NCBI GenBank assembly: GCA_015709315.1
Contig: JACCQI010000006.1
Location: 52,943 to 116,942, forward strand
From: Desulfovibrionaceae bacterium
Lineage (GTDB): Bacteria; Desulfobacterota; Desulfovibrionia; Desulfovibrionales; Desulfovibrionaceae
DNA length: 64,000 bases
Direction: 5' to 3'
Below the pieces are notes generated by a model. It ran no database searches and had not been told where the DNA came from. It was given only the letters and a program-made list of their open reading frames with translations. The position numbers were made by a program, and so were the translations under genes. Of the stretch, positions 42,059-64,000 are shown in pieces (the stretch's first letter is position 1; each line of letters starts with the position of its first letter).

Positions 42059-42072
42059 GGAGGATGGAAACC

Positions 42073-42772: not shown

Positions 42773-42809
42773 TCTTTGCGGAGACATTCACGAACAGGGA
42801 GGACATGCG

Positions 42810-43052: not shown

Positions 43053-43064
43053 ACGGAGGAATCT

Positions 43065-44489: not shown

Positions 44490-44507
44490 CCCTGGCCGAG
44501 GCGGACA

Positions 44508-45947: not shown

Positions 45948-46576
45948 AGATCGTCACCGGAATCGACCGGCTGAACACCCCCGCCCTGTTCGCGGCAAGC
46001 CGCCGCAGGATCATCCTCCACGCCGCGGTGTACGGGACGTTCGCCCGCTCCAGGCCGCACCGCGAGGGACTGGAGGCGGCCCTGGCAAAGCCCGGGTTCG
46101 AGCGGCTCGACATCATCGTTCTGGAGCCGGGCAACGACCAGGGCTGGGTCCGTCCCTTCCTGGACGCCCTGCGCTTCGGCATCTCCACCCAGGCGGCCGA
46201 CGACGAGGTCGCGCTGTCCCATCGGTTCATGACCGAACTGGCCCGGCGATACCCGGACAAGGTGCGGCTGCACCCGGCCCGGCGGCTGCCCTGCCTGCCC
46301 GTCATCATCGCGGACGACGTCATCATTTTCGGCCAATACGCCCACGCGGGCGTGCATGCGCCGCAGGGATTCTGGGGCATGATCCGGGCGGACGTGCCCA
46401 CGCTGCTGCAATGGACCAGGGCGGGCAAGCCACCGCCCCATTCGGGCGACGAGGAGATTGCCGCCTTCCGGCTCGTCAACGAGTGCGCCAGGGCCATGTG
46501 CGCCTGCCGCGCCCTCTCGCCCTTCACCGCCCAACACCTCGACCACCGGGATTTCCCGGCCTCCAACCCGACATGA
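45944..46576 (+). CDS. conserved-context protein of unknown function in the hyd maturation operon
   Basis: 210 residues, soluble, no signal peptide. I do not recognise the family. Visible features: a start KIVTGIDRLNTPALFAASRRR, DIIVLEPGNDQGWVRPFLDAL, VRLHPARRLPCLPVIIADDV, IIFGQYAHAG and a C-terminal pair CACRAL. The alternating beta/alpha pattern with HPARR suggests a Rossmann-like or phospholipase-D-like fold, without a clear HKD motif. ATGA overlaps on both sides (aspA and hydE) and GAGGAGG upstream show it is a true member of the operon. It may be an accessory factor for H-cluster assembly. Confidence 0.85.
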   Translation: MKIVTGIDRLNTPALFAASRRRIILHAAVYGTFARSRPHREGLEAALAKPGFERLDIIVLEPGNDQGWVRPFLDALRFGISTQAADDEVALSHRFMTELARRYPDKVRLHPARRLPCLPVIIADDVIIFGQYAHAGVHAPQGFWGMIRADVPTLLQWTRAGKPPPHSGDEEIAAFRLVNECARAMCACRALSPFTAQHLDHRDFPASNPT

Positions 46577-49191: not shown

Positions 49192-49563
49192 TATCGCTCT
49201 CCTTTTGGCTATCGTTTTTCTTCCGCCTCTTTTCAAATTGTAATCACTACTCGGTAAAAAACAAGCCCCGTGAATAAAATAAATGCAGTGTACACAGTAG
49301 GATACAAATAATTTATCCGTAACATTTGTTGCCACGCAACCGCTGATCGTCTGCCGAACAGGCGAGGCCCCGCGAGTTCGTCGTCCCATCGCGCCACCCA
49401 AGGACGCAAACCCGCACCCGGAACGGCACGTATCGCAAAAGCCTGGCACATGCTTGATTTGATTTAACCAATTTGATTTTCATTTGCGTTTATTGACACG
49501 ATTTTTAAAACAGTGCTATTTAGCGCAACATCTTCCTAAAATAGTATACAAAGCGAGGTGTCC
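49192..49563. other. divergent regulatory region before the ABC importer
   Basis: About 370 bp, AT-rich. A near-palindrome GGATACAAAT-A-ATTTATCC lies at 49300-49318. A good promoter for the importer is seen: TTGACA at 49493-49498, then TATTTA at 49517-49522 after 18 bp. No gene is supported inside. Confidence 0.55.
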
Positions 49564-51165
49564 ATGCATGTTCCGAAACGACTTTCGGTCGGTCGATCCC
49601 TGGCGATCCTGGCCGCGGGCCTGATAGTTTTCTGCGCCATGGCCGCGTCCCCGGCACTGGCCAGGGATACGCTCACCCTGGCCGTCAAGGGCGAGCCGGA
49701 CGACGGCTATGACCCCACACTGGGCTGGGGCCGCTACGGCAGCCCCCTGTTCCAGTCCACCCTGCTCAAGCGGGACGAAAACCTGAACATCGTCAACGAC
49801 CTGGCCACCTCGGCAGCCCTGTCCGCCGACGGCCTGGCCTGGTCCGTGGCCATCCGCGAGGACGCCAAGTTCTCGGACGGCACGCCTCTGACCGCCGAGG
49901 ACGTGGCCTACACCTTCAACACCGCGGCCAAGGCGGGCGGCAAGGTGGACCTCATCAATCTCGACAAGGCCGAGGCCACCGGCAAATACGCCGTGGAGTT
50001 CACGCTCGGAAAGCGCGACACGACCTTCATCAACCGGCTCATCAGCCTGGGCATCGTTCCCAAGGCCGCCCACGGCCCCGGATACGCGCGCAAGCCCGTG
50101 GGTTCCGGCCCGTACATGATGGTCGAATGGAACGAGGGCCAGCAGATGATCGCCGAGGCCAACCCGCATTATTACGGGCGCAAGCCCTTCTTCAAGCGGT
50201 TGGTCTTCCTGTTCACCGACGAGGACACCTCGTTCGCGGCCGCCAAGGCGGGCAAGGTGGACGTGGTGGTGGTCCCGCAGGCCCTGGCCGTGCAGACCAT
50301 CCCCGGCATGACCCTACATCCGGTGAAGAGCGTGGACAACCGGGGGCTGATGTTCCCCACCGTGCCCGACACCGGCAAGACCACGGACAAGGGCGCGCCC
50401 ATCGGCAACGACGTGACCGCCGACCTGGCCATTCGCCGCGCGGTCAACGTGGCCATTGACAGGAACGTGCTGGTCTCCGGTGTGCTGGAAGGCTTCGGCC
50501 GCCCGGCCTACGGCCCCTGCGACGGCCTGCCCTGGGACAATCCCGAGAACAAAATCAAGGACGGCGATCCCGAAGCCGCCCGCAAGATACTGGCCGACGC
50601 GGGCTGGAAGGACACGGACGGCGACGGCATCGTCGAGAAGGACGGCCTCAAGGCCGAGTTCACCGTCATCTACCCGGCCGGGCGCTCCATCCGCCAGTAC
50701 CTGGCCCTGGCCTGCGCCGACATGCTCAAGAAGATCGGCATCAACGCCAAGGTGGAGGGCAAGCGCAGTTGGGACGAGATCAAGCACCTCATGCACTCCT
50801 GCGTCATCGTCTTCGGCTGGGGCGCGCACGACCCCATCGAGGTGTACCAGCTCTACTCCAGCCACCATGCGGGCGACGGCTGGAACAACCCCGGCTACTA
50901 CACCAACGCCAAGGTGGACGAATACCTGGACGGTGCCATTTCCGCCCCCGGCTACGAAGCGTCCCTGGAATTGTGGAAGAAGGCGCAGTGGGACGGCGAG
51001 ACCGGCTCCAACGCGCACGGCGACGCCCCCTGGGCCTGGCTGGTCAACCTGGAGCACACCTACTTCATCAGCAACCACCTGGACGTCGGCGTTTCGCAGG
51101 TCGAACCGCACGGCCACGGCTGGCCCATCACGGCCAACATCCAGAAGTGGACCTGGAAAGACTAA
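49564..51165 (+). CDS. SBP_bac_5 substrate-binding protein of a nickel/peptide-type importer
   Basis: 533 residues. A signal peptide ends in ASPALA|RD. The mature part has the family 5 pattern: LTLAVKGEPDDGYDP, LATSAALSADGLAWSVAIRE, FSDGTPLTAEDVAYTFN, GSGPYMMVEWNEGQQM, and VNVAIDRNVLVSGVL. This family binds peptides, nickel-chelates and opines. Because the divergent gene encodes a HypB-like metal binder, nickel uptake is the first guess. ATG at 49564 has GAGG five bases upstream; a GTG at 49558 is inside that site. A strong hairpin separates it from the permease genes. Confidence 0.9.
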   Translation: MHVPKRLSVGRSLAILAAGLIVFCAMAASPALARDTLTLAVKGEPDDGYDPTLGWGRYGSPLFQSTLLKRDENLNIVNDLATSAALSADGLAWSVAIREDAKFSDGTPLTAEDVAYTFNTAAKAGGKVDLINLDKAEATGKYAVEFTLGKRDTTFINRLISLGIVPKAAHGPGYARKPVGSGPYMMVEWNEGQQMIAEANPHYYGRKPFFKRLVFLFTDEDTSFAAAKAGKVDVVVVPQALAVQTIPGMTLHPVKSVDNRGLMFPTVPDTGKTTDKGAPIGNDVTADLAIRRAVNVAIDRNVLVSGVLEGFGRPAYGPCDGLPWDNPENKIKDGDPEAARKILADAGWKDTDGDGIVEKDGLKAEFTVIYPAGRSIRQYLALACADMLKKIGINAKVEGKRSWDEIKHLMHSCVIVFGWGAHDPIEVYQLYSSHHAGDGWNNPGYYTNAKVDEYLDGAISAPGYEASLELWKKAQWDGETGSNAHGDAPWAWLVNLEHTYFISNHLDVGVSQVEPHGHGWPITANIQKWTWKD

Positions 51166-51176
51166 CCCTCTCCGGC

Positions 51177-51206
51177 GCGGCGGCGGGGCAGAGGCTCCGC
51201 CGCCGC
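51177..51206 (+). other. intercistronic hairpin behind the substrate-binding protein gene
   Basis: A perfect 10-bp GC stem (GCGGCGGCGG / CCGCCGCCGC) with a 10-nt loop, no T-run, between the binding-protein stop and the permease start. Such stems often keep the binding-protein message more abundant than the permease message. Confidence 0.7.
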
Positions 51207-51213
51207 CGGGACA

Positions 51214-52215
51214 ATGCCTATGCACGCCATTTCCGCATCCTTCTGCATGGCCAAGATCGGGCGGCTGGTCCTGATCCTGTCGCTGGTCTCGACCCTGGCC
51301 TTCACCCTGGTCTCCCTGTCGCCCGTGGACCCGGTTTCCGCCTACATCGGCATCGACCGGATGCAGATCAGCACGGAACAGGAGCAGCGGATCATCGAGC
51401 GCTGGGGGTTGGACCGGCCCGCGCCCGAGCGGTTCCTCATCTGGGCCGGCAACGTGCTCAGGGGCGATCTCGGCCAGTCCATGATCTTCAACGAGCCGGT
51501 AACCACGGTCATCGGCAAGCGGTTCGTGACCTCGCTCTGGCTCATGGCCTCTGCCTGGCTGCTGTCCGGGGTGCTCGGCTTTGTGCTGGGCGTGGTGGCG
51601 GGCACCAACAGGGGGTCCCCGGCCGACCGGGTCATCCGTTTGTACAGCTACACGCTCGCCTCGACCCCCTCCTTCTGGATGGGGCTGGTGCTGCTGGCCG
51701 TGTTCTCCGTATCGCTGGGCCTCACGCCCATCTGCTGCGCCACCCCGCCGGGCGTGTCGCCCGATGACGCCACCCTGTGGCAGCGCCTCCACCACCTGAT
51801 TCTCCCGGCCGCAACCCTGTCGCTCATCGGCGTGGCCCAGATCGCCCTGCACACCAGGGAAAAGACCATCGACGCCATGAACAGCGAATACGCCCTGTTC
51901 GCCTTTGCCCAGGGCGAGTCCAGGGCCGGCGTGGCCTGGCGGCACGCGGTCCGCAACGTGGCCCTGCCCGCCGTCACCCTCCAGTTCGCCTCCCTGGGCG
52001 AGCTGTTCGGCGGCTCGGTGCTGGCCGAGCAGGTCTTCTCCTATCCCGGCCTGGGCAAGGCCACGGTGGAGGCGGGCATACGCGGCGACGTGCCGCTCCT
52101 GCTGGGCATCACCCTGTTCAGCGCCCTGTTCGTCTTCACCGGCAACCTCGTCGCGGACATCCTGTACGGCGTGCTGGACCCGCGCATCCGCATCGGCACG
52201 GAGGAGGCGAAATGA
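51214..52215 (+). CDS. ABC transporter permease, DppB/NikB type
   Basis: 333 residues, six membrane segments. BPD_transp_1 features: GRLVLILSLVSTLAF at the N-terminus, FLIWAGNVLRGDLGQS, the EAA-like loop REKTIDAMNSEYALFAFAQG and the end IRIGTEEA. It pairs with the second permease, whose start overlaps this stop by 4 bp. Two Cys (ICCATPP) lie in a periplasmic loop. The start codon could also be the ATG three codons in. Confidence 0.92.
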   Translation: MPMHAISASFCMAKIGRLVLILSLVSTLAFTLVSLSPVDPVSAYIGIDRMQISTEQEQRIIERWGLDRPAPERFLIWAGNVLRGDLGQSMIFNEPVTTVIGKRFVTSLWLMASAWLLSGVLGFVLGVVAGTNRGSPADRVIRLYSYTLASTPSFWMGLVLLAVFSVSLGLTPICCATPPGVSPDDATLWQRLHHLILPAATLSLIGVAQIALHTREKTIDAMNSEYALFAFAQGESRAGVAWRHAVRNVALPAVTLQFASLGELFGGSVLAEQVFSYPGLGKATVEAGIRGDVPLLLGITLFSALFVFTGNLVADILYGVLDPRIRIGTEEAK

Positions 52216-53075
52216 GCACCCTCGCCCGCACTCCGGCCCTGGCGGAACGGCTGGGAATCACGGACGGCCGGGGCCGGGCAATGTGGGTCCTCGGCCTGTG
52301 CCTGGCCTATTTCGCCACGCTCCTGCTCGCCGCCGCCTTCATGGGCGACGCGGGGTTGTCCACGGATTTCCCGAACAAAAAGCTCGCCCCGTGCTTCGAG
52401 TTCCCCTTCGGCACGGACTGGCTGGGCCGCGACATGCTCGTGCGCACGGTCAAGGGGCTGTGCCGCAGCCTGGGCATCGGGCTGCTGGCGGCCACGGTCA
52501 GCTCCGTGGTCTCGGCCGCGCTCGGCACCCTGTCCGCCACCATGGGCAAGCGGACCGACGCCGTGGTCACCACGCTCATCGACCTGGTCATGGCCACCCC
52601 GCACCTGGTGCTGCTCATCCTGGTGTCCTTCGCCTGCGGCGGCGGAGCCACCGGCGTCATCATCGCCGTGGCGGTCTCCCACTGGACGCGGCTGGCGCGC
52701 ATCATACGGGCCGAAATCCTGCAACTGAAGCAGGCGGAATTCGTCATGGTCTCGCGCAAGCTCGGCCGCTCCCCCTGGTGGATCGCCCGCCGCCACATGC
52801 TGCCGCACATCGCGCCCCAGTTCACCATCGGCCTGATCCTGCTCTTTCCGCACGCCATCCTCCACTCCGCCGGGCTGACCTTCCTGGGATTCGGGCTTTC
52901 CCCGCACAATCCGTCCATCGGCATCCTGCTCTCCGAATCCATGCGGCACATTTCCACCGGCTACTGGTGGCTGGCCATCCTTCCGGGGCTGTCCCTGCTG
53001 GTCACCGTCAAGCTCTTCGACGTCCTGGGCAACAGCCTGCGCGTCATCACCGATCCCAAAACCAGCCAGGAGTGA
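52212..53075 (+). CDS. ABC transporter permease, DppC/NikC type
   Basis: 287 residues, five to six membrane segments. DppC/NikC features: FPFGTDWLGRDMLVRTVKG, ATVSSVVSAALGTLSA, and the coupling loop REFVMVSRKLG-like EFVMVSRKLGRSPWWIARR followed by HMLPHIAPQ. The end LTFLGFGLSPHNPSIGILL is typical. GAGGAGGC precedes the ATG. With the preceding permease it forms the membrane channel of the importer. Confidence 0.92.
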   Translation: MSTLARTPALAERLGITDGRGRAMWVLGLCLAYFATLLLAAAFMGDAGLSTDFPNKKLAPCFEFPFGTDWLGRDMLVRTVKGLCRSLGIGLLAATVSSVVSAALGTLSATMGKRTDAVVTTLIDLVMATPHLVLLILVSFACGGGATGVIIAVAVSHWTRLARIIRAEILQLKQAEFVMVSRKLGRSPWWIARRHMLPHIAPQFTIGLILLFPHAILHSAGLTFLGFGLSPHNPSIGILLSESMRHISTGYWWLAILPGLSLLVTVKLFDVLGNSLRVITDPKTSQE

Positions 53076-53078
53076 CCC

Positions 53079-54005
53079 GTGCTTTCGGTCAAGAACCTGT
53101 CCATCGAATTCAGCCGGTACGGCTCGGCCCGGCGGCGCACGATCATCCATCCGGTCCGGGACCTGTCCCTGGACATCGGGGACGGCGAAATCGTGGCCGT
53201 GGTCGGCTCCAGCGGGTCCGGCAAAAGCCTGCTCGCCCACGCCGTGCTCGGCCTGCTGCCGGGGAACGCCCGCACCTCCGGCGAAATCCTGTTCAAGGGA
53301 ACGCCGCTGACAAGCGCGTCCATGGCTGCCCTGCGGGGACGGGCCATCGCCCTCATCCCGCAGTCCGTGGCCTACCTGAATCCCCTGTCGCGGGTGGGCA
53401 GGCAGGTCTACCGGGCCTCGCGTCTGAGCGGCAAATGCCGCGCCACGGCGGCCCGGAGCACGGACCGGGCATTCGCCCGCTACCGGCTCGACGAAAGCGT
53501 GAAATCCTTGTTCCCCTTCCAGGTGTCCGGCGGCATGGCCCGCCGCGTGCTCACTGCCACGGCCACGGCGGGTGACGCCGACCTGCTCATTGCGGACGAG
53601 CCGACCACCGGCCTGGACCCCGTGGTGGCCCGACAGTCGCTTTCGCACCTCAGGGAACTGGCCGACCTCGGCAAGGCCGTGATGCTCATCACCCACGACA
53701 TCGACGCGGCCGTGACCGTGGCCGACAGGGTGGCGGTCATCTATGCGGGCACCACGGTGGAGCTGACGCCCGCCCGGAATTTCGCGGACGGCGCACTGCG
53801 CCACCCTTACTCGCGGGCGCTCTGGAACGCGTTGCCGCAGCAGGGATTCGGCTTCGTGCCCGGAAACCAGCCCATGGAGGACGACGCGGTCAACGGGTGC
53901 ATCTACCTGGACCGCTGCCCGGACCGGACCGGGGAATGCCGCTGCGCGCAACCCCTGCGCCCGGTCGGCAAAGGACACGTGAGGTGCTGCCATGCTCAAG
54001 GCTGA
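53079..54005 (+). CDS. ABC transporter ATP-binding protein, DppD/NikD type
   Basis: 308 residues from a GTG with AGGAG upstream. Walker A GSSGSGKS, a slightly unusual signature VSGGMARRVL, Walker B LLIADEPTTGLD and the His in LITHDID. A C-terminal oligopeptide-transporter tail with four Cys (CIYLDRCPDRTGECRCAQP) is present, known in DppD-type ATPases as an iron-sulfur site. It overlaps the next gene by 14 bp. Confidence 0.92.
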   Translation: MLSVKNLSIEFSRYGSARRRTIIHPVRDLSLDIGDGEIVAVVGSSGSGKSLLAHAVLGLLPGNARTSGEILFKGTPLTSASMAALRGRAIALIPQSVAYLNPLSRVGRQVYRASRLSGKCRATAARSTDRAFARYRLDESVKSLFPFQVSGGMARRVLTATATAGDADLLIADEPTTGLDPVVARQSLSHLRELADLGKAVMLITHDIDAAVTVADRVAVIYAGTTVELTPARNFADGALRHPYSRALWNALPQQGFGFVPGNQPMEDDAVNGCIYLDRCPDRTGECRCAQPLRPVGKGHVRCCHAQG

Positions 54006-54633
54006 ATCCGTTTCCTTTTGCTACGACAACACGCCCTGGATTCTGGAGGGGTTCGACTTCGGCGTCGGCCCCGGCGAGGTGGTGGGCCTTCCCGGCCCCA
54101 GCGGCCAGGGCAAATCGACCCTGGCGAAGGTCCTTGCCGGGCACCTTGCGCCGCAACAGGGCGCGGTGACCTGCGACGGCCGCCCGCTGCCCGAGGGCGT
54201 CTTCTCCCCGGTCCAACTGATCTTCCAGCACCCGGAGCTGACCATGAACCCGCGCTGGAAGCTCAGGGACAGCGTGGCCGAGGGGCACACCCCGGACGCG
54301 GCCGCGTTCAAGCGGCTGAACATCGAACCGGCCTGGCTTTCGCGCTACCCCCACGAACTGTCGGGCGGGGAATTGCAGCGCCTGGCCCTGGCCCGCGTCA
54401 TGTCGCCGCAGACCCGCTACCTGATCGCGGACGAGATGACGGCCATGCTCGACCCCAACACCCAGGCCCTGGTCTGGGACGCGGTGCTGCACTGGGCCAA
54501 GGCAAACGGCGTGGGCATTCTGGCCATCAGCCATGACCGCCATCTGCTGGACCGCATCGCCCACCGGGTGGACGAGTCCTTTGCGCCGCCCGGCCCGACC
54601 CCGCCGGAAACCACCTGCCGGGCCGCCGCGTAG
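53992..54633 (+). CDS. ABC transporter ATP-binding protein, NikE type (short)
   Basis: 213 residues, at the short end for the family. Walker A GPSGQGKST, signature ELSGGELQRLALAR, Walker B YLIADEMTAMLD (Met in place of the usual Pro after DE) and LAISHDRHLLD. The C-terminal OppF tail is absent. With NikD-like ATPase it powers the five-gene importer. The substrate is not fixed by sequence. Confidence 0.9.
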   Translation: MLKAESVSFCYDNTPWILEGFDFGVGPGEVVGLPGPSGQGKSTLAKVLAGHLAPQQGAVTCDGRPLPEGVFSPVQLIFQHPELTMNPRWKLRDSVAEGHTPDAAAFKRLNIEPAWLSRYPHELSGGELQRLALARVMSPQTRYLIADEMTAMLDPNTQALVWDAVLHWAKANGVGILAISHDRHLLDRIAHRVDESFAPPGPTPPETTCRAAA

Positions 54634-54812: not shown

Positions 54813-55781
54813 TTACCCCTCGGGAATTTCCTCCACGAGCTTTGCCGCCGTTTGGTCGTCCGTGATGAGGACGTCCGCGAGTCCGGCCCGGATGCCCGCG
54901 AGGATGATGTCCTTTTTCTGCACCCCTCCGGCCGCCAGAACGCACCGGGGGATGGCCCTAAGCGCCGACATGGGCGGCGCGATGGCCAAGCGGTTCAGCC
55001 GATGGTCCATGACGTTGCCGTCCGCGTCCAAAAAATAGCCGCAGATGCTGCCCACCGCACGGGATTCGAGAAGCGACCGCCGCTGTTCCTCGGTCAGCAC
55101 GTTGTACTTCGTGGCATTGGACACGTCGCTCAGGTCGATGGCCGTCAGCAGCGCGGTGGTGATGAGCGGCACCTGGTCGAGCACCGTTCGCACGGCCCGG
55201 CTGGCGATGAGCAGATCCCGCAGCTCCGGGGAATCCGCGTACATGGGCGCGGGGATGTAATAGCAGTGGGCATCCAGCGAGCGGGCGAAAAAGGCGGCGT
55301 TGTCGTAGGGATTGACCTGGCCGCTGCTGGCCAGTCCCCCGCACAGCGAGATGACCGTGGCCCCTTCCCCCGAACGGGGCCTCAGGGCCTGGGCCGCGCT
55401 GCTCGTCGTTCCGCCCCAGGTCAGGCCGAACACCTCGCCCGGCTCCAGGCTGTCGGAAAGATACCCGCCCGCGGCCTCGCCCACGACCTTCCGCACGTCC
55501 CCGTCCTCGGCCGGACCGGGAACCACCACGGCCCCCTTCAGGCCGAACCGATCGACGAGCTTCGCTTCCAGCTCCGGGCAGATGCCGAAAGGCGGAACAA
55601 TGGCGAAACGCACGAACCCGTTGGAGCGCGCCTCATTGAGAATCCGGTTCACCCGCATCCGGGGCAGGCCGAGCCGGTTCGCAATGGATTCCTGCGTTTG
55701 CCCCTCGATGTAATAATGCCAGCAGATGCGGGCCCACAGAAGTCCCTCTTCGCTCGAAAGCCGCCATTCATCAGTCTGCAT
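54813..55781 (-). CDS. SorC/DeoR-type transcriptional regulator
   Basis: 322 residues from the ATG at 55781, which has GGAG at the right distance; an ATG at 55793 lacks one. The N-terminal HTH is ARICWHYYIEGQTQESIANR then LGLPRMRVNRILNEA. The C-terminal sugar-phosphate-binding domain shows LEPGEVFGLTWGGTTSS and DVLITDDQTAAKLVEE. Members bind phosphorylated effectors and often control a neighbouring catabolic operon. It is divergent from the hydrolase/ABC cluster and likely controls it. Confidence 0.92.
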   Translation of the reverse strand: MQTDEWRLSSEEGLLWARICWHYYIEGQTQESIANRLGLPRMRVNRILNEARSNGFVRFAIVPPFGICPELEAKLVDRFGLKGAVVVPGPAEDGDVRKVVGEAAGGYLSDSLEPGEVFGLTWGGTTSSAAQALRPRSGEGATVISLCGGLASSGQVNPYDNAAFFARSLDAHCYYIPAPMYADSPELRDLLIASRAVRTVLDQVPLITTALLTAIDLSDVSNATKYNVLTEEQRRSLLESRAVGSICGYFLDADGNVMDHRLNRLAIAPPMSALRAIPRCVLAAGGVQKKDIILAGIRAGLADVLITDDQTAAKLVEEIPEG

Positions 55782-56048
55782 TTTTGTCTCCATTCAAACG
55801 GACAATATCCGCAACGATCAAAAATAGCTATAAAAATTATATCCTTATCAAAAATTGAAGTTGTTGCTGAATTGTCGTTATCCCGTCACCAACATGCCGT
55901 GAATCAATTGTAGGTTGGAAAAATCAAATGATCGAAAACACGTTGGCCCAATCGTCCTCATGGAGATAGTATAAATGTTCCAAATCACCAACTCTGCTTC
56001 GCGCTCCCGCTCGATCGCCCCCGAATCCCTCCGAAAGGGGAGGCCTGC
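55782..56048. promoter_or_regulatory. divergent promoter region of the SorC gene and hydrolase cluster
   Basis: About 265 bp, AT-rich. Related motifs GACAAT (about 55800) and ATTGTC (about 55872) lie in opposite orientation about 70 bp apart and could be regulator half-sites. No exact long palindrome was found. Confidence 0.35.
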
Positions 56049-57341
56049 ATGAGCGGCCCCGCGAAAACCCTCGCCATCCTCACCGTCTGTGACGGCCTGA
56101 ATCCCGATTGGATAAACAAGGAGCACACTCCGGTCATCGCCGGACTGCGCACTGAAGGCATGTGGTGCGCCGACCACGGCAGCGTTTTTCCTAGCGTGAC
56201 CCGGAACGCATCGGCCAGCCTGACCACCGGATGCCGTTCCGTCGTGCACGGCCTGCACGGCAACACCATGGCCCTGAACGAAAAGGGCCGACTCGTGGTG
56301 CGCGACGTGGGCAGGCCCGACTTCCGGCACTACATGCGCCGGGCAACGGGTGCCACGCTGCGCGCCCCCTCCCTGGCGGAACGCATCAAAAAGACCGGCG
56401 TCGCCGCGGCCTACTCCAATGTATCCCCCGGAGCCGCCTACTTCCTGGACCCGGAGCATTTCGGGTGGGTCTACCACCGCGCCGGGTCGTTCGGCCCCGG
56501 CGGGGAAGCGCTCCCGAACGGGCGCGGCCTGGACGTCAGCCACGACTCCGCCGGGGACCAGGACATGACGGCGCGGTTTTGCGACGACGTGGCCACGCGC
56601 CCCGATCTGGCCCTGGGCATCCTCTGGCTCAGCAACCCGGACGCGACCATGCACCTGCACCCCCTCGGCTCCCCCGAGCACCTCAAGGCCCTTCGGGAAG
56701 CCGATGCGTGCGTCGGCCTGGTCGCCGAAACCGTTTCCCGGCTTCGGGCCAGGGGACACGATGTCCTGTTCCTCGTCGGCTCGGACCACGGGATGGAAAC
56801 GGTATGCGGCTACAAGGACATTCAGGCGGAACTGGCCGAGGCGGGCGTCGGCGACGCCTTTCTCCGGGGAGATGCGGCCGTTGCCCCCCAAGGCTCGGGC
56901 GCGCTGATCTACGCTTCCCCGGAAGCCCGGCCCCGGATCGGGGACGCACTAAAATTCCTTGCGGGCCGGCCGTGGGTGGACAGGGTCATTCCCCTGTCCG
57001 GGCTTCACGAAGTCGGGCACGGCCCCCTGGGCGGGCTGGTCGCGGCAGTGGACATGGGCAGGATCGACGAGGCCAACCCTTTTGGGGTGCCGGGCATGCG
57101 ATGGGGAGCCGCGAAGAGCGGCAAGGGCGACGTGTCCCCGCTGCCGACCGGAACCGGCATACACGGCGGTCTCGGCGCGGACGAAACCAGGCCGTTTCTG
57201 ATCGCGCTGGGCAGGGACTACGCCCCGGGGTCGAAAACGGACAAACGAACCGGCCTGGTGGACATCGCGCCCACCATTTTGGATTTTTTGAACATTTCGC
57301 AAACAGGCATGGAAGGCGGCCCGCTCCCGAAACGGGCATAG
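56049..57341 (+). CDS. alkaline-phosphatase-superfamily phosphodiesterase/hydrolase
   Basis: 430 residues, no signal peptide, so cytoplasmic. Metal and nucleophile residues of the type I phosphodiesterase/phosphonoacetate hydrolase branch can be read: Asp15 in TVCDGLNPD, Thr51 in FPSVTRNAS, Asp198 and His202 in SNPDATMHLH, Asp246/His247 in GSDHGME and His372 in GTGIHGG. It should hydrolyse a phospho- or phosphono-monoester/diester. It lacks the paired Lys of the second hydrolase in this cluster, so the substrate is probably different. GGGAGG precedes the ATG; the ABC importer follows 48 bp later. Confidence 0.88.
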   Translation: MSGPAKTLAILTVCDGLNPDWINKEHTPVIAGLRTEGMWCADHGSVFPSVTRNASASLTTGCRSVVHGLHGNTMALNEKGRLVVRDVGRPDFRHYMRRATGATLRAPSLAERIKKTGVAAAYSNVSPGAAYFLDPEHFGWVYHRAGSFGPGGEALPNGRGLDVSHDSAGDQDMTARFCDDVATRPDLALGILWLSNPDATMHLHPLGSPEHLKALREADACVGLVAETVSRLRARGHDVLFLVGSDHGMETVCGYKDIQAELAEAGVGDAFLRGDAAVAPQGSGALIYASPEARPRIGDALKFLAGRPWVDRVIPLSGLHEVGHGPLGGLVAAVDMGRIDEANPFGVPGMRWGAAKSGKGDVSPLPTGTGIHGGLGADETRPFLIALGRDYAPGSKTDKRTGLVDIAPTILDFLNISQTGMEGGPLPKRA

Positions 57342-57389
57342 GCCGCATCGCGACATCACAACGAACCACACTTTTGGAGGTAGTCAGAA

Positions 57390-58940
57390 ATGGTCCTTAA
57401 ACGAAACATCACATGGGGGAAACGACTGTCCGCCTGGGCCGTCGCGGCCCTGGTCTGTCTCATGGCCCTGCCGCTGTCCTCGGCGCGGGCCGAGACCCCG
57501 CAGAGAGGCGGAGCGCTGAAGATCGCCACCCTCGGCCTGGACACGTCCGATCCGCACCGCCACACCGGCTCCATCGGTGTCCAGCAGGTCTACGTCGAAG
57601 CCCTCACCAGCATTGCAGGCGACGGCAGCGTCAAGCCGTTTTTGGCCGAAAGCTACGAGGTATCTCCCGACGGCAAGACCTACACCTTCACCCTTCGCAA
57701 GGGCGTGCAGTTCCATAACGGCCGGGTCCTGACGGCCAAGGACGTGGCCGCCAACTTCGAACGCGTCCAGAAAAACGTGTCCAAGGGCTGGCTGGCCAGC
57801 GCCATGAAGCAGGTCCAAGGATTCGAAGCCAAGGACGACACGACCTTTGTCGTGCATATGGAAAACCCCTATGCCGCGTTCCTGAACCTCATCTCCGAAC
57901 TGTGGATCATCGCTCCCGAGTCCGACGGCTGGAACGAAACCATCACCAAGCCCCTCGGCACAGGTCCCTTCATGTTCGGCGAATGGGTTCCCAACGCCAC
58001 GTTCCACGCGCCCCGGTTCCCACACTACCGGCAGAAGGGCCTTCCCTATCTGGACGCCGTGGAGTTCGACCTGCGCGGCTCCAAGGACAACGACCTGGCC
58101 CTGCGCTCCGGCGACCTGCAGATCGCCATGGTCAACCGCGACAAAATCCCCTCCATGGCCAAGGACCCCAACATATCCATCCAGAACCTGAAGGACACCT
58201 CCTGGTACTTCTGGACATTCAACAACCGCCGCCCCAACAAGCCCCTGGACAACGTGCGCGTCCGCGAGGCCGTCAGCTACGCATTGGACAAGACGGCCTA
58301 CATGCGCTTCATCGCCGGTGAGCAGGGCGTCGTCGGCAACCAGATGGTCATCCCCGGAAACTTCTACTACGACGCGGAACTGAACAAGTCCGACAGGCAC
58401 GCCGAGAGCAATCTCGACAAGGCCAGGGAAATCCTCAAGCAGGAAGGCGTAAACCCCGAGGACATCACCCTCAAGGTCGTCTCCTGGCAGAAGCAGTACG
58501 CCGAGGTGGCCGTACAGATGATCAAGAAGCTCGGATTCAAGATCAACCATCTGTCCCTGGACGACCTGGGCGCGCAGAACGAGCTCGGCAAGTACGACTG
58601 GGACCTCTGCATCATGCACTCCGGCCCCCGCGCCGACATCTTCCTGCGCTACGTCCGCATGATGAGCGACGGCCCCAACCCCGTCCTTTGGGGCGGCGTG
58701 CAGGACCCCGAGTACGACAGGATCGTGAACCGGGCCATCACCACGGTGGACGCCGACAAGCGCCGCGCCCTCTACCTCGACGCCTGGAAGCGGGTCATGG
58801 ACAATTACTACACGGTCGTCGCGGGCCACGCGGCCAACGCCATCGGCGTGCGCTCCGAGGTCCACGGCTACGACACCGGCTTCACATGGTCTCAGAACCG
58901 GGCGGACAGCGGCCTGGCCTTCACCTGGATGGACCAATAA
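57390..58940 (+). CDS. SBP_bac_5 substrate-binding protein
   Basis: 516 residues. The signal peptide ends LSSARA|ET. Family 5 pattern: GGALKIATLGLDTSDPHRH, LAESYEVSPDGKTYTFTLRK, VQFHNGRVLTAKDVAANF, GTGPFMFGEWVPN, and VREAVSYALDKTAYM. It differs clearly from the binding protein at 49564-51165. Its position between two phosphoesterase-type genes suggests that it binds an organophosphorus compound or a peptide/amide that carries one. GGAGG precedes the ATG. Confidence 0.92.
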   Translation: MVLKRNITWGKRLSAWAVAALVCLMALPLSSARAETPQRGGALKIATLGLDTSDPHRHTGSIGVQQVYVEALTSIAGDGSVKPFLAESYEVSPDGKTYTFTLRKGVQFHNGRVLTAKDVAANFERVQKNVSKGWLASAMKQVQGFEAKDDTTFVVHMENPYAAFLNLISELWIIAPESDGWNETITKPLGTGPFMFGEWVPNATFHAPRFPHYRQKGLPYLDAVEFDLRGSKDNDLALRSGDLQIAMVNRDKIPSMAKDPNISIQNLKDTSWYFWTFNNRRPNKPLDNVRVREAVSYALDKTAYMRFIAGEQGVVGNQMVIPGNFYYDAELNKSDRHAESNLDKAREILKQEGVNPEDITLKVVSWQKQYAEVAVQMIKKLGFKINHLSLDDLGAQNELGKYDWDLCIMHSGPRADIFLRYVRMMSDGPNPVLWGGVQDPEYDRIVNRAITTVDADKRRALYLDAWKRVMDNYYTVVAGHAANAIGVRSEVHGYDTGFTWSQNRADSGLAFTWMDQ

Positions 58941-58959
58941 CCACAACACGAAGTACGCA

Positions 58960-59865
58960 ATGCAATCGACGCTTCTTGCAACAATCAACGCGTTCGGCGG
59001 GCGCCTTTTCAGGCGTCCGCCGTCCGGCTCCGCGCGGCGGGCGCGGCTCCCGGGCGGCCTGACCGTCACGGCGGGGATCATCCTCGCCGCCTCCTGCCTC
59101 GTGGCGCTGGCCGGCTCGCTGCTCATGCCCTACGACCCCATGGAGCAGATGCTCCTGGACACCAACCAGGGAATCAGCGCGGCCCACTGGCTCGGCACGG
59201 ACAATCTCGGGCGGGACGTGCTCTCACGGCTCATCTTCGGCACCCGCATAAGCCTGCTGGCCGGAACCGGCGGACTCCTGTTCGCCCTGATCCTCGGCGG
59301 GGGCCTCGGGCTTCTGGCCTCGGCCCTCGGCGGCGTGTTCGAGTACCTCGCCTACGGCTTCATCGACCTGCTGCGGACCATGCCGGGCATCCTCCTGGCG
59401 CTGACGCTGGTGGTATCCCTGGGGTCCGGGTTTCTCTCCGTGACCTTTGCCCTGGGCCTGGTCTTCGCGCCGGTATTCGCCCGCATCGCCAGGGCCGTCT
59501 ACCAAAGGGAGATGTCCTCGGAGTATTTCACCTACTCCCTCATAAACGGCGCTTCCAGGCTGTGGATATTGCGCAGGCACGTCCTGCCCAACGTGCTCGG
59601 CGCCTTCGTCACCCAGGCCGGGATCATCCTCCCCCGCTGCATCGTCACGGAATCGGTACTCAGCTTCCTCGGGGTGGGCATGTCTCCCGAAACGCCCACA
59701 TGGGGCCGCATGATCGCCGTTTCGAGCCGATACCTGGAACAAAACCCCGTCAGCGTCATCGCCCCGGTGCTGGCGCTTTCGCTGCTGACGCTGTCCATCG
59801 CCGTTCTCAGCAACAACCTGCGGCGCAACACCGACGTGCTGCGGCGCAATGCGGCGGAGGCATAA
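58960..59865 (+). CDS. ABC transporter permease, DppC type
   Basis: 301 residues, about six membrane segments. Typical DppC elements: PMEQMLLDTNQGISAAHWLG, TDNLGRDVLSRLIFGTRISL, IDLLRTMPGILLALTL, and the coupling loop SSEYFTYSLINGASRL. LSFLGVGMSPETPTWGRMI closes the pattern. The DppC-type gene precedes the DppB-type gene here, the reverse of the usual order. The start has only a weak ribosome site. Confidence 0.92.
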   Translation: MQSTLLATINAFGGRLFRRPPSGSARRARLPGGLTVTAGIILAASCLVALAGSLLMPYDPMEQMLLDTNQGISAAHWLGTDNLGRDVLSRLIFGTRISLLAGTGGLLFALILGGGLGLLASALGGVFEYLAYGFIDLLRTMPGILLALTLVVSLGSGFLSVTFALGLVFAPVFARIARAVYQREMSSEYFTYSLINGASRLWILRRHVLPNVLGAFVTQAGIILPRCIVTESVLSFLGVGMSPETPTWGRMIAVSSRYLEQNPVSVIAPVLALSLLTLSIAVLSNNLRRNTDVLRRNAAEA

Positions 59866-59866
59866 C

Positions 59867-59938
59867 ATGGCAAGACCGTTCAGCCGGGCCGGACAAGACC
59901 TCGGACGCCACGAAAAGGAAACGCCATGCAACTCCTGA
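59867..59938 (+). CDS. possible 23-codon leader ORF before the DppB-type gene
   Basis: An ATG preceded by GGAGG opens a 23-residue frame (MARPFSRAGQDLGRHEKETP...) that ends 13 bp inside the next gene in another frame. It could couple translation of the two permeases, or be accidental. Confidence 0.25.
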   Translation: MARPFSRAGQDLGRHEKETPCNS

Positions 59939-60840
59939 CCGCCATACTGCTCTCCGCCCTGCGGACCGCCGGGCTGGTCGTCAGCATCACCGTGCTGGTG
60001 TTTTTCCTGGTGCGGGTAATCCCCGGCGACGTCGTGGACCTCCTTTCCGCGGAAGGCGGCCTGGATGCGGCCATGCAGGAGGAGATGCGCCAGGAGCTGG
60101 GCCTCCAGCAAAGCCGGCCCGCACAGCTCGGCAACTGGGCGGCAAATGCCGTCCATGGCGACTTCGGCGACTCGCTGCGATTTCACAAGCCCGTGGGCGG
60201 CATGGTGTGCCAGGCCCTGCCCACCACGATCATCCTGAGCAGCCTGAGCTTCGCCTACGGACTGTTTCTGGGCTGCGCCGTGGCCGTTCTGGCCGTTTTG
60301 TGGCCCAAGTCCTTTTTTCCCAAGGCCGTTGAAACGCTCAACGCGTGGTCCGTGGCCATGCCGACCTTTTGCGCGGGCCTTCTGGGAATCCTCGTGGTGG
60401 TGCTCTGGCTTGAATGGATGCCCATGCTGGGCAACATGTTCCTCGCCGTGGTCGTGCTCGGCACGGACGTCGCGGGCCAGATCGCCAAGCCGCTGTACGA
60501 GGACCTCAAGGAAACCGCCACATCCAAATTCATCATGACCGCCAAGGCCAAGGGACTCGGGAAGACCCGCGTGATCCTCTTCCACCTGCTCCCCAATTCG
60601 CTCTCCGTGATCCTGGCGTTGAGCGGCATCATCCTGGGCGGGCTGGTGGGCGGCACCATCACCCTGGAAGTGCTGTTCGGCCTGCCGGGCATCGGCAAGC
60701 TGGCCTTGGACGGCGTCCTGGGCCGGGACTATCCCCTGGTGCAAGCCGTTATCCTGCTCCTGGCCGTGGCCGTGGTCTGCATCAACTGGTTCACGGACAT
60801 CATCGCCAAACTCATAGACCCCCGGCTTCGCAGCCATTGA
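59926..60840 (+). CDS. ABC transporter permease, DppB type
   Basis: 304 residues, six membrane segments. VFFLVRVIPGDVVDLLSAEG at the N-terminus, HGDFGDSLRFHKPVGG, the coupling loop KETATSKFIMTAKAKGLG and LEVLFGLPGIGKLALDGV are typical. AAGGAAA precedes the ATG. With the DppC-type gene it forms the channel; the fused ATPase gene follows 8 bp later. Confidence 0.92.
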   Translation: MQLLTAILLSALRTAGLVVSITVLVFFLVRVIPGDVVDLLSAEGGLDAAMQEEMRQELGLQQSRPAQLGNWAANAVHGDFGDSLRFHKPVGGMVCQALPTTIILSSLSFAYGLFLGCAVAVLAVLWPKSFFPKAVETLNAWSVAMPTFCAGLLGILVVVLWLEWMPMLGNMFLAVVVLGTDVAGQIAKPLYEDLKETATSKFIMTAKAKGLGKTRVILFHLLPNSLSVILALSGIILGGLVGGTITLEVLFGLPGIGKLALDGVLGRDYPLVQAVILLLAVAVVCINWFTDIIAKLIDPRLRSH

Positions 60841-60848
60841 GGAACACC

Positions 60849-62588
60849 ATGAACGCGCTGACATTCGAGGATTTCACCGTCACCTTCGCGGCCCGAAACG
60901 GCTCCAGCAGCCCTGTCCGGGGAGTGAACCTGCACCTGGCCAAGGGCCGGACCCTCGCCATCGTGGGCGAATCCGGCTCCGGCAAGACCCTGACCGGGAC
61001 CTCGGCCCTCGGCCTGCTGCCGGACACCGCCCGCACGAGCGGCCGCATCTTTCTGGACGACAATCCCATCCACGCCCTGTCGGAAAAGGAGCTGACCTCG
61101 CTGCGCGGACGGCGGATTTCCATCATCATGCAGGAACCCATGGCCGCCCTGAATCCGATCATGACCGTCGGCCGCCAGGTGGAAGAGGGTGTGCGGCTGC
61201 GGTCCGACGCGGCGGAACTCGACGTGCGGCAAAAGCTCGCCGACCTCTTCCGCGAAGTCGGGCTTAACGACGTGGAGAAATACCGCAGCGCATACCCCCA
61301 CGAGATGTCCGGCGGCCAGTTGCAGCGCGTTATGATCGCCATGGCCCTGGCCCGCGATCCCGAAGTGCTCATCGCCGACGAGCCGACCACCGCACTGGAC
61401 GTGACCATCCAGCGCCAGATTCTCCAGCTCCTCTCCAATCTCCAGCGGTCGCGGCGCATGGCGATTCTTTTCGTCAGCCACGACATCGCCGTGGTCGCGC
61501 AGATCGCCCACGACGTGGCGGTCATGTGCAACGGGGAGATCGTGGAGTACGGAACGGTGGAGGACGTCCTGCGCCGCCCCCGGCACCCCTACACGCGCCG
61601 CCTGCTGGCGAGCCATCCCGAAGGCAGGCCGCACAAGACCTTGCTGCCCATATCCCCGAACGACCGGTCTCCAGCCGAGCCGAAGCGACCGGAAAACGGA
61701 CCGGCCGCGATCCCGGCTCCCGCGCGAAAACCCCGGCAGGTGCTCAGGACCAGCGGCCTGGAAGTGGTTTATTCCAAAGGCCGGATCAACAAACGGAGCT
61801 TCGTCGCCCTGCGCGGGGTGGACGTAACCCTGAACGCGGGGGAAACGCTGGGCATCGTCGGCGAATCAGGGTCCGGCAAGAGTTCGCTCGCCAAGGCGAT
61901 CCTCGGCATCGCCCCGGTGACCGCCGGGCATGTAGAGCTTTTCGGAAAGCGGCTCGACAATCTGCCGGTCCGCGAGCGGGCGGCGCTTCGCCGACGCTGC
62001 CAGATCGTCTTTCAGAACTCGGCCTCCTCGTTGAACCCGAGGCTCAACGTCCTCCAGCTCCTGGCCGAGCCGTATCTCCTCCACGCCAAGCCGCCTGCCG
62101 GAACCATCGAAAAAAGCGCGGGCGCCCTCCTCGAAGAGGTGGGGCTGCCGAGGGAGATGCTCAATCGCTACCCCCACGAACTGTCCGGGGGCCAGCGCCA
62201 GCGCGTCAACATCGCCCGCGCCCTGGCAAGCGACCCCGAGATGGTGATCTGCGACGAGGCGGTCTCCGCCCTCGACATCTCGGCCCAGGCGCAGGTCATC
62301 AACCTGCTGCTGACCATCCAGCGGAAACGCCGCCTCGCCATGCTGTTCATCAGCCACGACCTGCAAGTGACCCAGCACGTTTCGGATCGGATCTGCGTGG
62401 TCAAGGACGGCGCTGTCATGGAGGAAGGACCGGCGCAGTCCGTGTTCTCCCCCCCCCGGTGCGCATACACCCGCAATCTCGTCGCCGCCAGCCCCAGCCT
62501 GCATGGGCCCGACGGTCCCGCGCCGGGGATGCCCGCCGCGACCGTTCGAGGCAGGATCGCGGAGCGGAACGCAAGCCCTCGGGCGTAA
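60849..62588 (+). CDS. fused DppD-DppF type ABC ATPase
   Basis: 579 residues, two complete ATPase domains in one chain. First domain: Walker A GESGSGKTL, signature MSGGQLQRVMIAMALA, Walker B LIADEPTTALD, VSHDIAV. Second domain (from about 310): GESGSGKSS, ELSGGQRQRVNIARALA, VICDEAVSALD, ISHDLQV. A Pro-rich linker of about 35 residues joins them. Fusion of this kind is known in the peptide/opine/nickel importer family. It powers the importer of the phosphohydrolase cluster. Confidence 0.94.
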   Translation: MNALTFEDFTVTFAARNGSSSPVRGVNLHLAKGRTLAIVGESGSGKTLTGTSALGLLPDTARTSGRIFLDDNPIHALSEKELTSLRGRRISIIMQEPMAALNPIMTVGRQVEEGVRLRSDAAELDVRQKLADLFREVGLNDVEKYRSAYPHEMSGGQLQRVMIAMALARDPEVLIADEPTTALDVTIQRQILQLLSNLQRSRRMAILFVSHDIAVVAQIAHDVAVMCNGEIVEYGTVEDVLRRPRHPYTRRLLASHPEGRPHKTLLPISPNDRSPAEPKRPENGPAAIPAPARKPRQVLRTSGLEVVYSKGRINKRSFVALRGVDVTLNAGETLGIVGESGSGKSSLAKAILGIAPVTAGHVELFGKRLDNLPVRERAALRRRCQIVFQNSASSLNPRLNVLQLLAEPYLLHAKPPAGTIEKSAGALLEEVGLPREMLNRYPHELSGGQRQRVNIARALASDPEMVICDEAVSALDISAQAQVINLLLTIQRKRRLAMLFISHDLQVTQHVSDRICVVKDGAVMEEGPAQSVFSPPRCAYTRNLVAASPSLHGPDGPAPGMPAATVRGRIAERNASPRA

Positions 62589-62668
62589 CTTGTCGTCTTT
62601 GTCAATGCGGCAGCCCGAATCCGCATCCGGCCCCGCAATTTCAACCAACCTCATACCAAGGGAACGTC

Positions 62669-63889
62669 ATGCTCCAACGTCCAATAAAAACAGCCATTTT
62701 CATGATAGACGGCTTTGACATGGCCTACTACCACACCACCGACATGCCGGTGATGCGCCAAATGGCCCGGGAAGGATTCTTCAAGCCCGGCAGCGCCATC
62801 TTTCCGTCCCTGACCAACGCCAACAACGTGTCCATCGCCTGCGGCAGTTGGCCGGAACGGCACGGTGTCACCACCAACTGCTACTACGACCAGGATCAGG
62901 ACAAGGCCGTCTACCTGGAATCCCCGGACTTCCTCCAGGCGCCGACCATCTTCGACTTCGCCGCTCTCGACGGCGGCCGGGAATCCGCGCTGCTGACCTG
63001 CAAGTCCAAGACGACGATGATCCTCGGGCAGTCGGCGACCATCGCCATCGCGGCGGAAAAGCCCAGCCCGGAAGTGGTGGAAAAATACGGGACCCCGCCG
63101 CCCATGTACTCCTCGGAGATCAACTACTGGCTTTTCGACGTAGCCATGGACCTGGCCTGCAACCGGCCGGAACTGGACGTCATCTACGTCCACACCACCG
63201 ACTACCCCATGCACATGTGGCCGCCCGAAGCGCCCGAATCGCAGGAGCACCTGAAAAAGCTCGACGAATATTTCGGCGCGTTCCACGAAGCCGCGCCGGA
63301 ATTCACCATAGCCGTCACCGCCGACCACGGCATGAACTACAAAAAGCGCTGCTGGAACCTGGCCAGGGCATGCGCCTCCCGGGGCGTGAACCTCAAGTTC
63401 GCCGTATCCCCCCTGGCGGACCGACTGCTCAAGCACCACGGCGGTTTCGGCGGCGTCGCCTATGTCTATCTCAATGATCCCGCCGACAGGGACCGGGCGG
63501 CCGAAACCCTCATGACCCTCGAAGGCGTGGAGGCCGTGCTCGATGCGGACGAGGCCGCGCACCGGTACAGCCTGATGCCGTCGCGCGTCGGCGACCTGGT
63601 TGTTCTTGCCGACCCGCACACCGTGTTCGGCGACCCGGAAGAGGAATGCAGGGAGCTGCCCGCCGAGTACCGGAGCCACGGCTCCCTCTACGACATGGAC
63701 GTCCCGCTGCTCCTCTTCAACTACGGCGACCTCGCCCCCCAATACCGGGACATCAACTACAACGTGGACCTGACCCGTGTCCTCTTCGGCACCGAACGCA
63801 CGATAGAGGGACATGGCCATCCCGAAGGCGGCCGAGGCAATGCCCCGCAGGACCGCCCGGCCGCCCCCTCGGAAGCGGCGGACAAATAG
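62669..63889 (+). CDS. phosphonoacetate-hydrolase-like alkaline phosphatase superfamily protein
   Basis: 406 residues, cytoplasmic. Catalytic residues: Asp14 in MIDGFD, Thr49 in FPSLTNANNVS (the PhnA form of the nucleophile loop), Asp178/His182 in TTDYPMHMW, Asp219/His220 in TADHGMN and His337 in YRSHGSL. A Lys pair in TCKSKTTMIL (112 and 114) corresponds in place to the Lys-x-Lys that holds the substrate carboxylate in Sinorhizobium PhnA. It probably cleaves the C-P bond of phosphonoacetate or a related carboxylated phospho-compound. AAGGGAA precedes the ATG at 62669. It lies 80 bp after the ATPase gene. Confidence 0.85.
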   Translation: MLQRPIKTAIFMIDGFDMAYYHTTDMPVMRQMAREGFFKPGSAIFPSLTNANNVSIACGSWPERHGVTTNCYYDQDQDKAVYLESPDFLQAPTIFDFAALDGGRESALLTCKSKTTMILGQSATIAIAAEKPSPEVVEKYGTPPPMYSSEINYWLFDVAMDLACNRPELDVIYVHTTDYPMHMWPPEAPESQEHLKKLDEYFGAFHEAAPEFTIAVTADHGMNYKKRCWNLARACASRGVNLKFAVSPLADRLLKHHGGFGGVAYVYLNDPADRDRAAETLMTLEGVEAVLDADEAAHRYSLMPSRVGDLVVLADPHTVFGDPEEECRELPAEYRSHGSLYDMDVPLLLFNYGDLAPQYRDINYNVDLTRVLFGTERTIEGHGHPEGGRGNAPQDRPAAPSEAADK

Positions 63890-64000
63890 CGAACGCATTA
63901 CTTGAATCCGCCATAAGGCACAAAAAAAGGTTCATCCGGTTCAAACGTACTTTTGACAAAATGAAAGGACATGGCGTCCAACCGTTGGAAGCATCACCAA
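63890..64000. other. right edge of the window
   Basis: AT-rich 60 bp, then ATG codons at 63964 and 63973 that may begin the next plus-strand gene; too little is visible to call it. Confidence 0.3.

What the first reader, a model, noticed from the sequence alone, without database searches (positions are those of the whole stretch)
54813..63889. SorC-controlled importer flanked by two different alkaline-phosphatase-superfamily hydrolases: candidate organophosphorus uptake and breakdown system
Seen: a divergent SorC-type regulator, then hydrolase 1, a family 5 binding protein, two permeases, a fused DppDF-type ATPase and hydrolase 2, all plus strand. Hydrolase 2 keeps the full PhnA residue set including a Lys-x-Lys pair; hydrolase 1 keeps the metal/nucleophile set but not the Lys pair. 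Neither has a signal peptide. Known: PhnA splits phosphonoacetate to acetate and phosphate. Inference: a compound with two phospho/phosphono bonds, or two related compounds, is imported whole and cut in two steps. A peptide-type importer instead of PhnCDE for this is unusual.
Basis: partly seen in the sequence, partly recalled or inferred. Interest (0 to 1): 0.7.

Follow-up and report, generated by a model that had tools for sequence, protein, structure and literature searches.

The report
Two-enzyme phosphonate uptake and breakdown cluster
This bacterium carries a gene cluster in which a peptide-type importer sits between two phosphatase-like enzymes, and because relatives of the same importer and first enzyme sit beside the phosphonoacetate-splitting enzyme PhnA in other bacteria, the cluster likely imports an esterified phosphonate and would cut it in two steps to free its phosphate.

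The parts
54813..55793 (-). SorC-type (sugar-binding domain) transcriptional regulator, divergent from the cluster
   Evidence: PF04198 184.8 bits; homologues of 44-46% identity near H2-family genes in L015, L018, L019 and of 51% near PhnA-H1 in L072; best-ranked of 87 matching records among 72,556 plasmid records 40%
55794..56048 (.). 255-bp divergent intergenic stretch, 44% GC against 64% for the window; likely promoter and operator region
   Evidence: composition; only one weak inverted repeat found, so no operator is claimed
56049..57341 (+). Hydrolase 1 (H1): NPP-type alkaline-phosphatase-superfamily enzyme, likely cytoplasmic phosphonate-ester or phosphodiester hydrolase
57390..58940 (+). 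Family-5 periplasmic binding protein, with an N-terminal secretion-signal-like stretch
   Evidence: PF00496 260.4 bits; 51-66% identical to binding proteins that abut H1 homologues in L053, L054, L074, L081, L082, L083
58960..59865 (+). Dpp/Nik-type permease (DppC/NikC-like)
   Evidence: PF00528 86.1 bits; below the cut-offs of all 20 NCBIfam families listed for it
59926..60840 (+). Dpp/Nik-type permease (DppB/NikB-like)
   Evidence: PF00528 84.2 bits; below the cut-offs of all 13 NCBIfam families listed for it
60849..62588 (+). Fused DppD-DppF-type ATPase, two ABC domains
   Evidence: two PF00005 stretches and one oligo_HPY; 43-46% identical to the fused ATPases of L053, L054, L074, L081, L082, L083
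62669..63889 (+). Hydrolase 2 (H2): PhnA-like, predicted C-P bond hydrolase of a clade beside PhnA

Best explanation
The cluster likely takes up an esterified phosphonate whole through its peptide-type importer and would break it down inside the cell in two hydrolytic steps. Inferred steps: (1) the family-5 binding protein catches a small phosphonate conjugate in the periplasm and the two permeases with the fused ATPase carry it in; (2) H1, an NPP-type enzyme, uses Thr51 and two metal ions to cut the P-O ester, leaving a free phosphonic acid; (3) H2, a PhnA-type enzyme, uses Thr49, two zinc ions and the Lys112/Lys114 pair to split the C-P bond of a carboxylate-bearing phosphonate such as phosphonoacetate, giving phosphate and acetate or a similar acid; (4) the SorC-type regulator would sense an intermediate and switch the genes. 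Shown here: gene content and order, residues, predicted folds, the recurrence of importer and H1 beside genuine PhnA, and the genome-level co-occurrence of H1 with PhnA. Not shown: any activity, the substrate, the transport, the regulation.
For: Divergent LysR, then phnA - H1 - binding protein - permease - permease - fused ATPase in Phyllobacterium (L053, annotated phnA), Microvirga (L054), L081 and L082; these four PhnAs pass the cut-off (512-603 bits). Rhizobium sp. 007 (L051) has phnA - H1 - phnD - phnE - phnC - amidase, i.e. PhnCDE in the peptide-type importer's place. Searches with the binding protein alone: 3 of 385 genomes at E <= 1e-100 and 2 of 72,556 plasmid records at E <= 1e-90; all 5 abut an H1 homologue, 4 also PhnA. 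PhnA is within 10 kb of H1 in 7 of 19 H1 loci. 12 of 13 Pseudomonadota genomes with H1 carry PhnA over the cut-off (3 adjacent, 9 elsewhere), 0 of 14 control genomes do; a published census gives 145 phnA in 1098 genomes of two alphaproteobacterial orders (PMC12366243, passages), binomial 3e-10 for 12 of 13, or 2e-8 for 10 of 11 with three closely related H1s counted once. H2's family: PhnDCE-type importer in 7 of 41 loci (in L045 on the other strand), Pst-type in 10, Pst-type permease only in 2 (types read from one representative each). H2 fold and residues; [quoted passage not shown] No PhnJ match in the genome. Precedent for family-5 import then phosphodiesterase: AccA and AccF for agrocinopine (PMC4526662, abstract; PMC7356202, start of abstract).
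Against: H2 is below the PhnA cut-off and outside the PhnA clade. 22 of 41 H2-family loci show no importer by my criterion, though several are truncated contigs. H1 occurs in only 1 of 40 searched genomes with an H2-family gene, so H1 with H2 is rare. 12 of 19 H1 loci lack PhnA within 10 kb, among them all seven whose H1 is 49-53% identical to the window's; H1 may be a general phosphodiesterase. In some searches only the best 3 or 4 candidates per genome were scored, so the counts are lower bounds. The fused ATPase passes the NikD, NikE, CntD and CntF cut-offs, its two domains being added together. Whether an amidase lies beyond the contig end is unknown.
Confidence: 0.5

Rival explanations
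1. The importer brings in ordinary phosphodiesters (sugar or glycerol phosphodiesters, as in the agrocinopine system); H1 is a general intracellular phosphodiesterase and H2 handles a second, separately imported phosphonate.
For: H1's fold is closest to NPP phosphodiesterases; H1 homologues occur near more distant peptide-type importers without PhnA nearby (L055, L073, L077, L078, L080, L084); AccA/AccF precedent (PMC4526662, abstract).
Against: Orthologues of this particular binding protein abut PhnA-H1 in 4 of 5 cases found by binding-protein searches, with PhnCDE in its place in L051; 12 of 13 H1 genomes carry PhnA.
Confidence: 0.25
2. H2's clade is not a C-P hydrolase but a hydrolase of a carboxylated phosphate or phosphodiester that kept the PhnA-like pocket; the cluster is for phosphate esters only.
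For: H2 is in a separate clade and far below the PhnA cut-off (189 against 408 bits); 10 of the 17 importer-linked loci have Pst-type, not PhnCDE-type importers.
Against: Both Lys residues are invariant in 52 rows and kept in 59 of 60 H2-family rows of the tree (the exception, L045, is a fragment); 7 of 41 loci have a PhnDCE-type importer, its permease above the PhnE cut-off in the one tested; in the H1-importer neighbourhoods of rhizobial plasmids the PhnA position is filled by genuine PhnA.
Confidence: 0.17
3. It is a peptide or nickel importer and the two hydrolases are unrelated neighbours.
For: All importer parts belong to the Dpp/Nik superfamily; the fused ATPase passes the NikD, NikE, CntD and CntF cut-offs, with its two domains added together.
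Against: No NCBIfam cut-off is reached by the binding protein or permeases; the H1-binding protein-permease-permease-ATPase order recurs in distant bacteria (L053, L054, L074, L081, L082).
Confidence: 0.05

Closest known systems
PhnA phosphonoacetate hydrolase (TIGR02335; PDB 1ei6, 3szy)
   Different: 28-32% identity, 189 bits against a 408-bit cut-off, separate clade, no PhnY above its cut-off in the genome
PhnA-H1-importer clusters of rhizobia (Phyllobacterium, Microvirga, Rhizobium sp. 007; found here)
   Same: H1 homologue and a PhnA-type enzyme; in Phyllobacterium and Microvirga also the orthologous family-5 importer in the same gene order
   Different: Their PhnA is genuine and first in the row, the regulator is LysR, two of the three end with an amidase; the window has an H2-clade enzyme last and a SorC regulator
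PhnWAY pathway for 2-aminoethylphosphonate
   Same: Ends with a PhnA-type hydrolase
   Different: No PhnY in the cluster; adds an NPP-type hydrolase and a peptide-type importer
Agrocinopine system AccA-AccF of Agrobacterium
   Same: Binding protein imports a phosphodiester, an intracellular phosphodiesterase cleaves it (PMC4526662, PMC7356202, abstracts); AccA chains are matched by the window's binding protein
   Different: Different phosphodiesterase family as I recall it (not tested here), no C-P hydrolase
Nucleotide pyrophosphatase/phosphodiesterases (Xac NPP, ENPPs)
   Same: H1 fold and metal set
   Different: H1 has no signal-peptide-like start, an invariant Arg beside the nucleophile where Xac NPP has Phe (alignment), about 20% identity

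Membership tests
PhnA (TIGR02335) | Score above the curated cut-off of 407.55 bits | tested here: not met
   H2 189.3 bits; H1 24.5 bits
PhnA (TIGR02335) | Catalytic Thr, two metal sites and the Lys pair | tested here: met
   H2: all present and invariant in 52 rows. H1: Lys pair absent
PhnA (TIGR02335) | Placement inside the clade of characterised PhnA | tested here: not met
   H2 lies among the 60 H2-family rows (SH-aLRT 89); PhnA clade of 13 rows with 1ei6 and 3szy has 100 (quick tree, distant root)
PhnA (TIGR02335) | PhnA fold | tested here: met
PhnA (TIGR02335) | Hydrolysis of phosphonoacetate | not testable with these tools
   needs purified enzyme
Type I phosphodiesterase / NPP (PF01663), for H1 | Pfam cut-off and NPP fold with its metal set | tested here: met
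PhnCDE phosphonate importer | PhnD-type binding protein, PhnE permease, PhnC ATPase | tested here: not met
   Binding protein is PF00496; one permease hits PhnE only at 22.2 against 216.7 bits
Dpp/Opp/Nik importer superfamily | SBP_bac_5 binding protein, two BPD_transp_1 permeases, DppD/F-type ATPases | tested here: met
   substrate subfamily not assignable: no binding-protein or permease cut-off reached, while the fused ATPase passes several (NikD, NikE, CntD, CntF) with two domains added together
C-P lyase | PhnJ in the genome | tested here: not met
   0 matches to PF06007 in G000, E. coli control rings
PhnWAY pathway | PhnY above cut-off in the genome | tested here: not met
   best 211 against 635.65 bits

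The most novel reading that the evidence does not exclude
A so far undescribed catabolic route for phosphonate esters: a peptide-type importer takes up a phosphonoacetate conjugate such as O-phosphonoacetic acid serine or a glyceryl or nucleotidyl phosphonoacetate, H1 is a dedicated phosphonate-ester hydrolase (a new step before PhnA), and H2 belongs to a large second family of C-P hydrolases, beside PhnA, spread over Thermodesulfobacteriota, Planctomycetota, Acidobacteriota, Bacteroidota and Methylophaga with exchangeable Phn, Pst and Dpp importers.
Probability: 0.3. Interest if true: 0.75.

Novelty: new variant of a known kind. Interest (0 to 1): 0.55.

Why it matters
If true, bacteria do not only use free small phosphonates: they import esterified ones and unwrap them inside the cell. 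That would give a function to a rare enzyme family now annotated only as 'alkaline phosphatase family protein' (H1), a phosphorus substrate to one subgroup of 'peptide' binding proteins, and a C-P hydrolase role to a broad clade beside PhnA. In a genome without a PhnJ match this would be a route to phosphonate phosphorus. A phosphonoacetate conjugate is known from an actinomycete (O-phosphonoacetic acid serine, PMC12723261 and PMC12288639, passages), so an obvious first substrate exists and the idea is directly testable.

Tried and rejected
PhnCDE, C-P lyase and PhnWAY membership were tested and not met (see Membership tests). Co-occurrence of H1 in H2-family genomes was looked for and is rare (1 of 40 at E <= 1e-20; L022's genome was not held). 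More copies of the set were sought in the window's phylum with the binding protein: 1 of 395, the window's own genome (at most 3 candidates scored per genome). An amidase, present in 5 of the 7 PhnA-H1 loci (L051, L052, L053, L072, L081), was sought in the own genome: one match only, 533 bits, on contig C86 about 13.7 kb from the nearer end; I did not classify it further. No convincing operator palindrome was found between SorC and H1. The SRB 'phnA' count in PMC4046663 (18 of 95, passage) was not used as support, because 'phnA' is also a name for the unrelated YjdM (PMC12506659, passages). PhnA is not in the 50 rows shown for H1; that is not taken as a difference of fold, since Foldseek lists 1ei6 at 6.4e-20. 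Seven of 12 plasmid records with H1 hits (27-29% identity) were not examined. Papers: no description of an H1-PhnA-peptide-importer cluster was met in the listings of searches or in the passages I read of some of those papers; this library is open-access only, and Kim 2011, Kulakova 2001 and Freestone 2017 were not held.
Full report
What is there. The described genes are all present and in the stated order: a divergent SorC-type regulator (54813-55793), H1 (56049-57341), a family-5 binding protein (57390-58940), two permeases (58960-59865, 59926-60840), a fused two-domain ATPase (60849-62588) and H2 (62669-63889), with gaps of 8 to 80 bp between the six plus-strand genes. The window ends at the end of its contig (116,942 bases), so anything downstream of H2 is unseen.

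H2's relatives elsewhere. A scan of genome contigs gave 41 loci in Thermodesulfobacteriota, Planctomycetota, Acidobacteriota, Bacteroidota, Methylophaga and others. By gene clusters, with types read from one representative of each importer type, 7 of 41 have a PhnDCE-type importer (in L045 on the other strand), 10 a Pst-type importer, 2 a Pst-type permease only and 22 none by this criterion, some being short contigs. Nine of 41 have two tandem copies, and L008 has a second copy cut by its contig end; the two kinds of copy fall in separate parts of the tree, so they look like old paralogues. Three loci (L015, L018, L019) also carry a SorC regulator 44-46% identical to the window's; the best-ranked SorC match in 72,556 plasmid records is 40%.

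The decisive neighbourhoods. On plasmids, H1 homologues of 40-45% identity occur in five records, all five of which I fetched (7 further records at 27-29% were not). Rhizobium sp. 007: LysR, then phnA - H1 - phnD - phnE - phnC - amidase. Phyllobacterium zundukense: LysR, then phnA - H1 - binding protein - permease - permease - ATPase - amidase. Microvirga VF16: the same, no amidase match. Variovorax: amidase - phnA - dehydrogenase - phnY - importer - phosphodiesterase - H1. Allorhizobium pseudoryzae: importer parts and H1, no PhnA match. In genomes, L081 and L082 repeat the Phyllobacterium order (amidase match in L081), L072 has amidase - PhnA - H1 with another importer class and a SorC regulator 51% identical to the window's beside a PhnY-family gene, and L074 (a Desulfobulbaceae genome that also has H2-family genes with a Phn-type importer on another contig) has H1 - binding protein - permease - permease - ATPase in the window's order. 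L083 has H1 and binding protein adjacent and the ATPase further on; permeases were not matched there. PhnA lies within 10 kb in 7 of these 19 H1 loci; the PhnAs scored (6 of the 7) pass the cut-off by 104 to 196 bits. The seven loci whose H1 is 49-53% identical to the window's (L071, L075-L080) have no PhnA match within the fetched stretch.

Independent test with the importer. Searching with the binding protein alone gave 3 of 385 genomes (E <= 1e-100; at most 3 candidates scored per genome) and 2 of 72,556 plasmid records (E <= 1e-90). All five sit directly beside an H1 homologue and four beside PhnA; the fifth genome (G657) has PhnA elsewhere. In the window's own phylum sample it was found in 1 of 395 genomes, the window's own. 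The protein database holds 333 relatives at E <= 1e-100; their neighbourhoods were not seen.

Genome-level link. Of the 13 H1 genomes, 12 have a PhnA above the cut-off (3 adjacent, 9 elsewhere; G579 has none), against 0 of 14 control genomes. In ten non-adjacent PhnA loci fetched from those nine genomes, 7 show a PhnY match of 63-70% identity nearby, so there the free phosphonate may instead feed 2-aminoethylphosphonate-type pathways. A published census counted 145 phnA genes in 1098 genomes of Hyphomicrobiales and Rhodobacterales (PMC12366243, passages); against that rate 12 of 13 has a binomial tail of 3e-10, and 2e-8 for 10 of 11 if three closely related H1s count once (5e-5 at a rate of 30%).

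Reading. The recurrent module is importer plus H1; the last step is filled by PhnA in rhizobia and by the H2-clade enzyme here, and the importer itself is exchanged for PhnCDE in one relative. The simplest account is that H1 makes the substrate of the PhnA-type enzyme: it would cut the P-O ester of a phosphonate conjugate, which PhnA or H2 then splits at the C-P bond. That NPP-type enzymes act on phosphonate monoesters such as p-nitrophenyl phenylphosphonate is recalled, not taken from a call. O-phosphonoacetic acid serine is a known phosphonoacetate conjugate (PMC12723261, section 11 and passages; PMC12288639, passages, which also mention a proposed nucleotidyl-phosphonoacetate intermediate); whether it is joined through P-O I infer from that intermediate only. 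The amidase in 5 of 7 PhnA-H1 loci hints at amide conjugates as well. Import of a phosphodiester by a binding protein of this broad family followed by an intracellular phosphodiesterase is known for agrocinopine (PMC4526662, abstract; PMC7356202, start of abstract).

Limits. No activity, ligand or regulation is shown. H2 in this setting is rare and apparently acquired (inference): 0 of 59 relatives have H2, and none of 59 has a full-length H1 (one has a 77-residue weak match). GC content does not set the cluster apart (genes 0.626-0.677 against 0.637 for the window). The genome has no PhnJ match and no PhnY above the cut-off; other C-P cleaving enzymes (PhnX, PhnZ, PalA) were not searched.

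Noticed in passing
window 63890-64000 and contig C53 end: The contig stops 111 bp after H2, so further genes of the cluster, such as the amidase that ends several relatives' clusters, may lie on another contig.
   Followed up: partly
L009, L010, L012, L013, L014, L016, L022, L026, L030: H2-family genes in tandem pairs whose two copies look like old paralogues (Cys in the first, Ser in the second at the position of H2 Cys71 in all nine pairs); why two PhnA-like enzymes are kept side by side is unexplained.
   Followed up: partly
window 49558-54633: A second, different family-5/Opp-type importer (binding protein, permeases, two separate ATPases) lies just upstream of the SorC gene; its substrate is unknown.
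   Followed up: partly
window 40718-48766: An [FeFe]-hydrogenase with maturases HydG, HydE-like (252.6 against 254.6 bits) and HydF, with an aspartate ammonia-lyase-type gene among them.
   Followed up: partly
L072:17826-19901: A SorC regulator 51% identical to the window's stands between a PhnY-family gene and a branched-chain-type importer that leads into amidase-PhnA-H1, hinting at a SorC branch tied to phosphonate use.
   Followed up: partly
L092:7001-8077 (Halomarina plasmid): A haloarchaeal PhnA-like protein with the full Lys-pair residue set, four genes before a PEP-mutase/isocitrate-lyase family gene; on a long branch outside both main clades of the tree.
   Followed up: no
L116 and L118 (G554, G238): PhnA genes in H1-carrying genomes beside a match to a Na/Pi cotransporter with no PhnY match (L118), or at a contig end (L116).
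   Followed up: no
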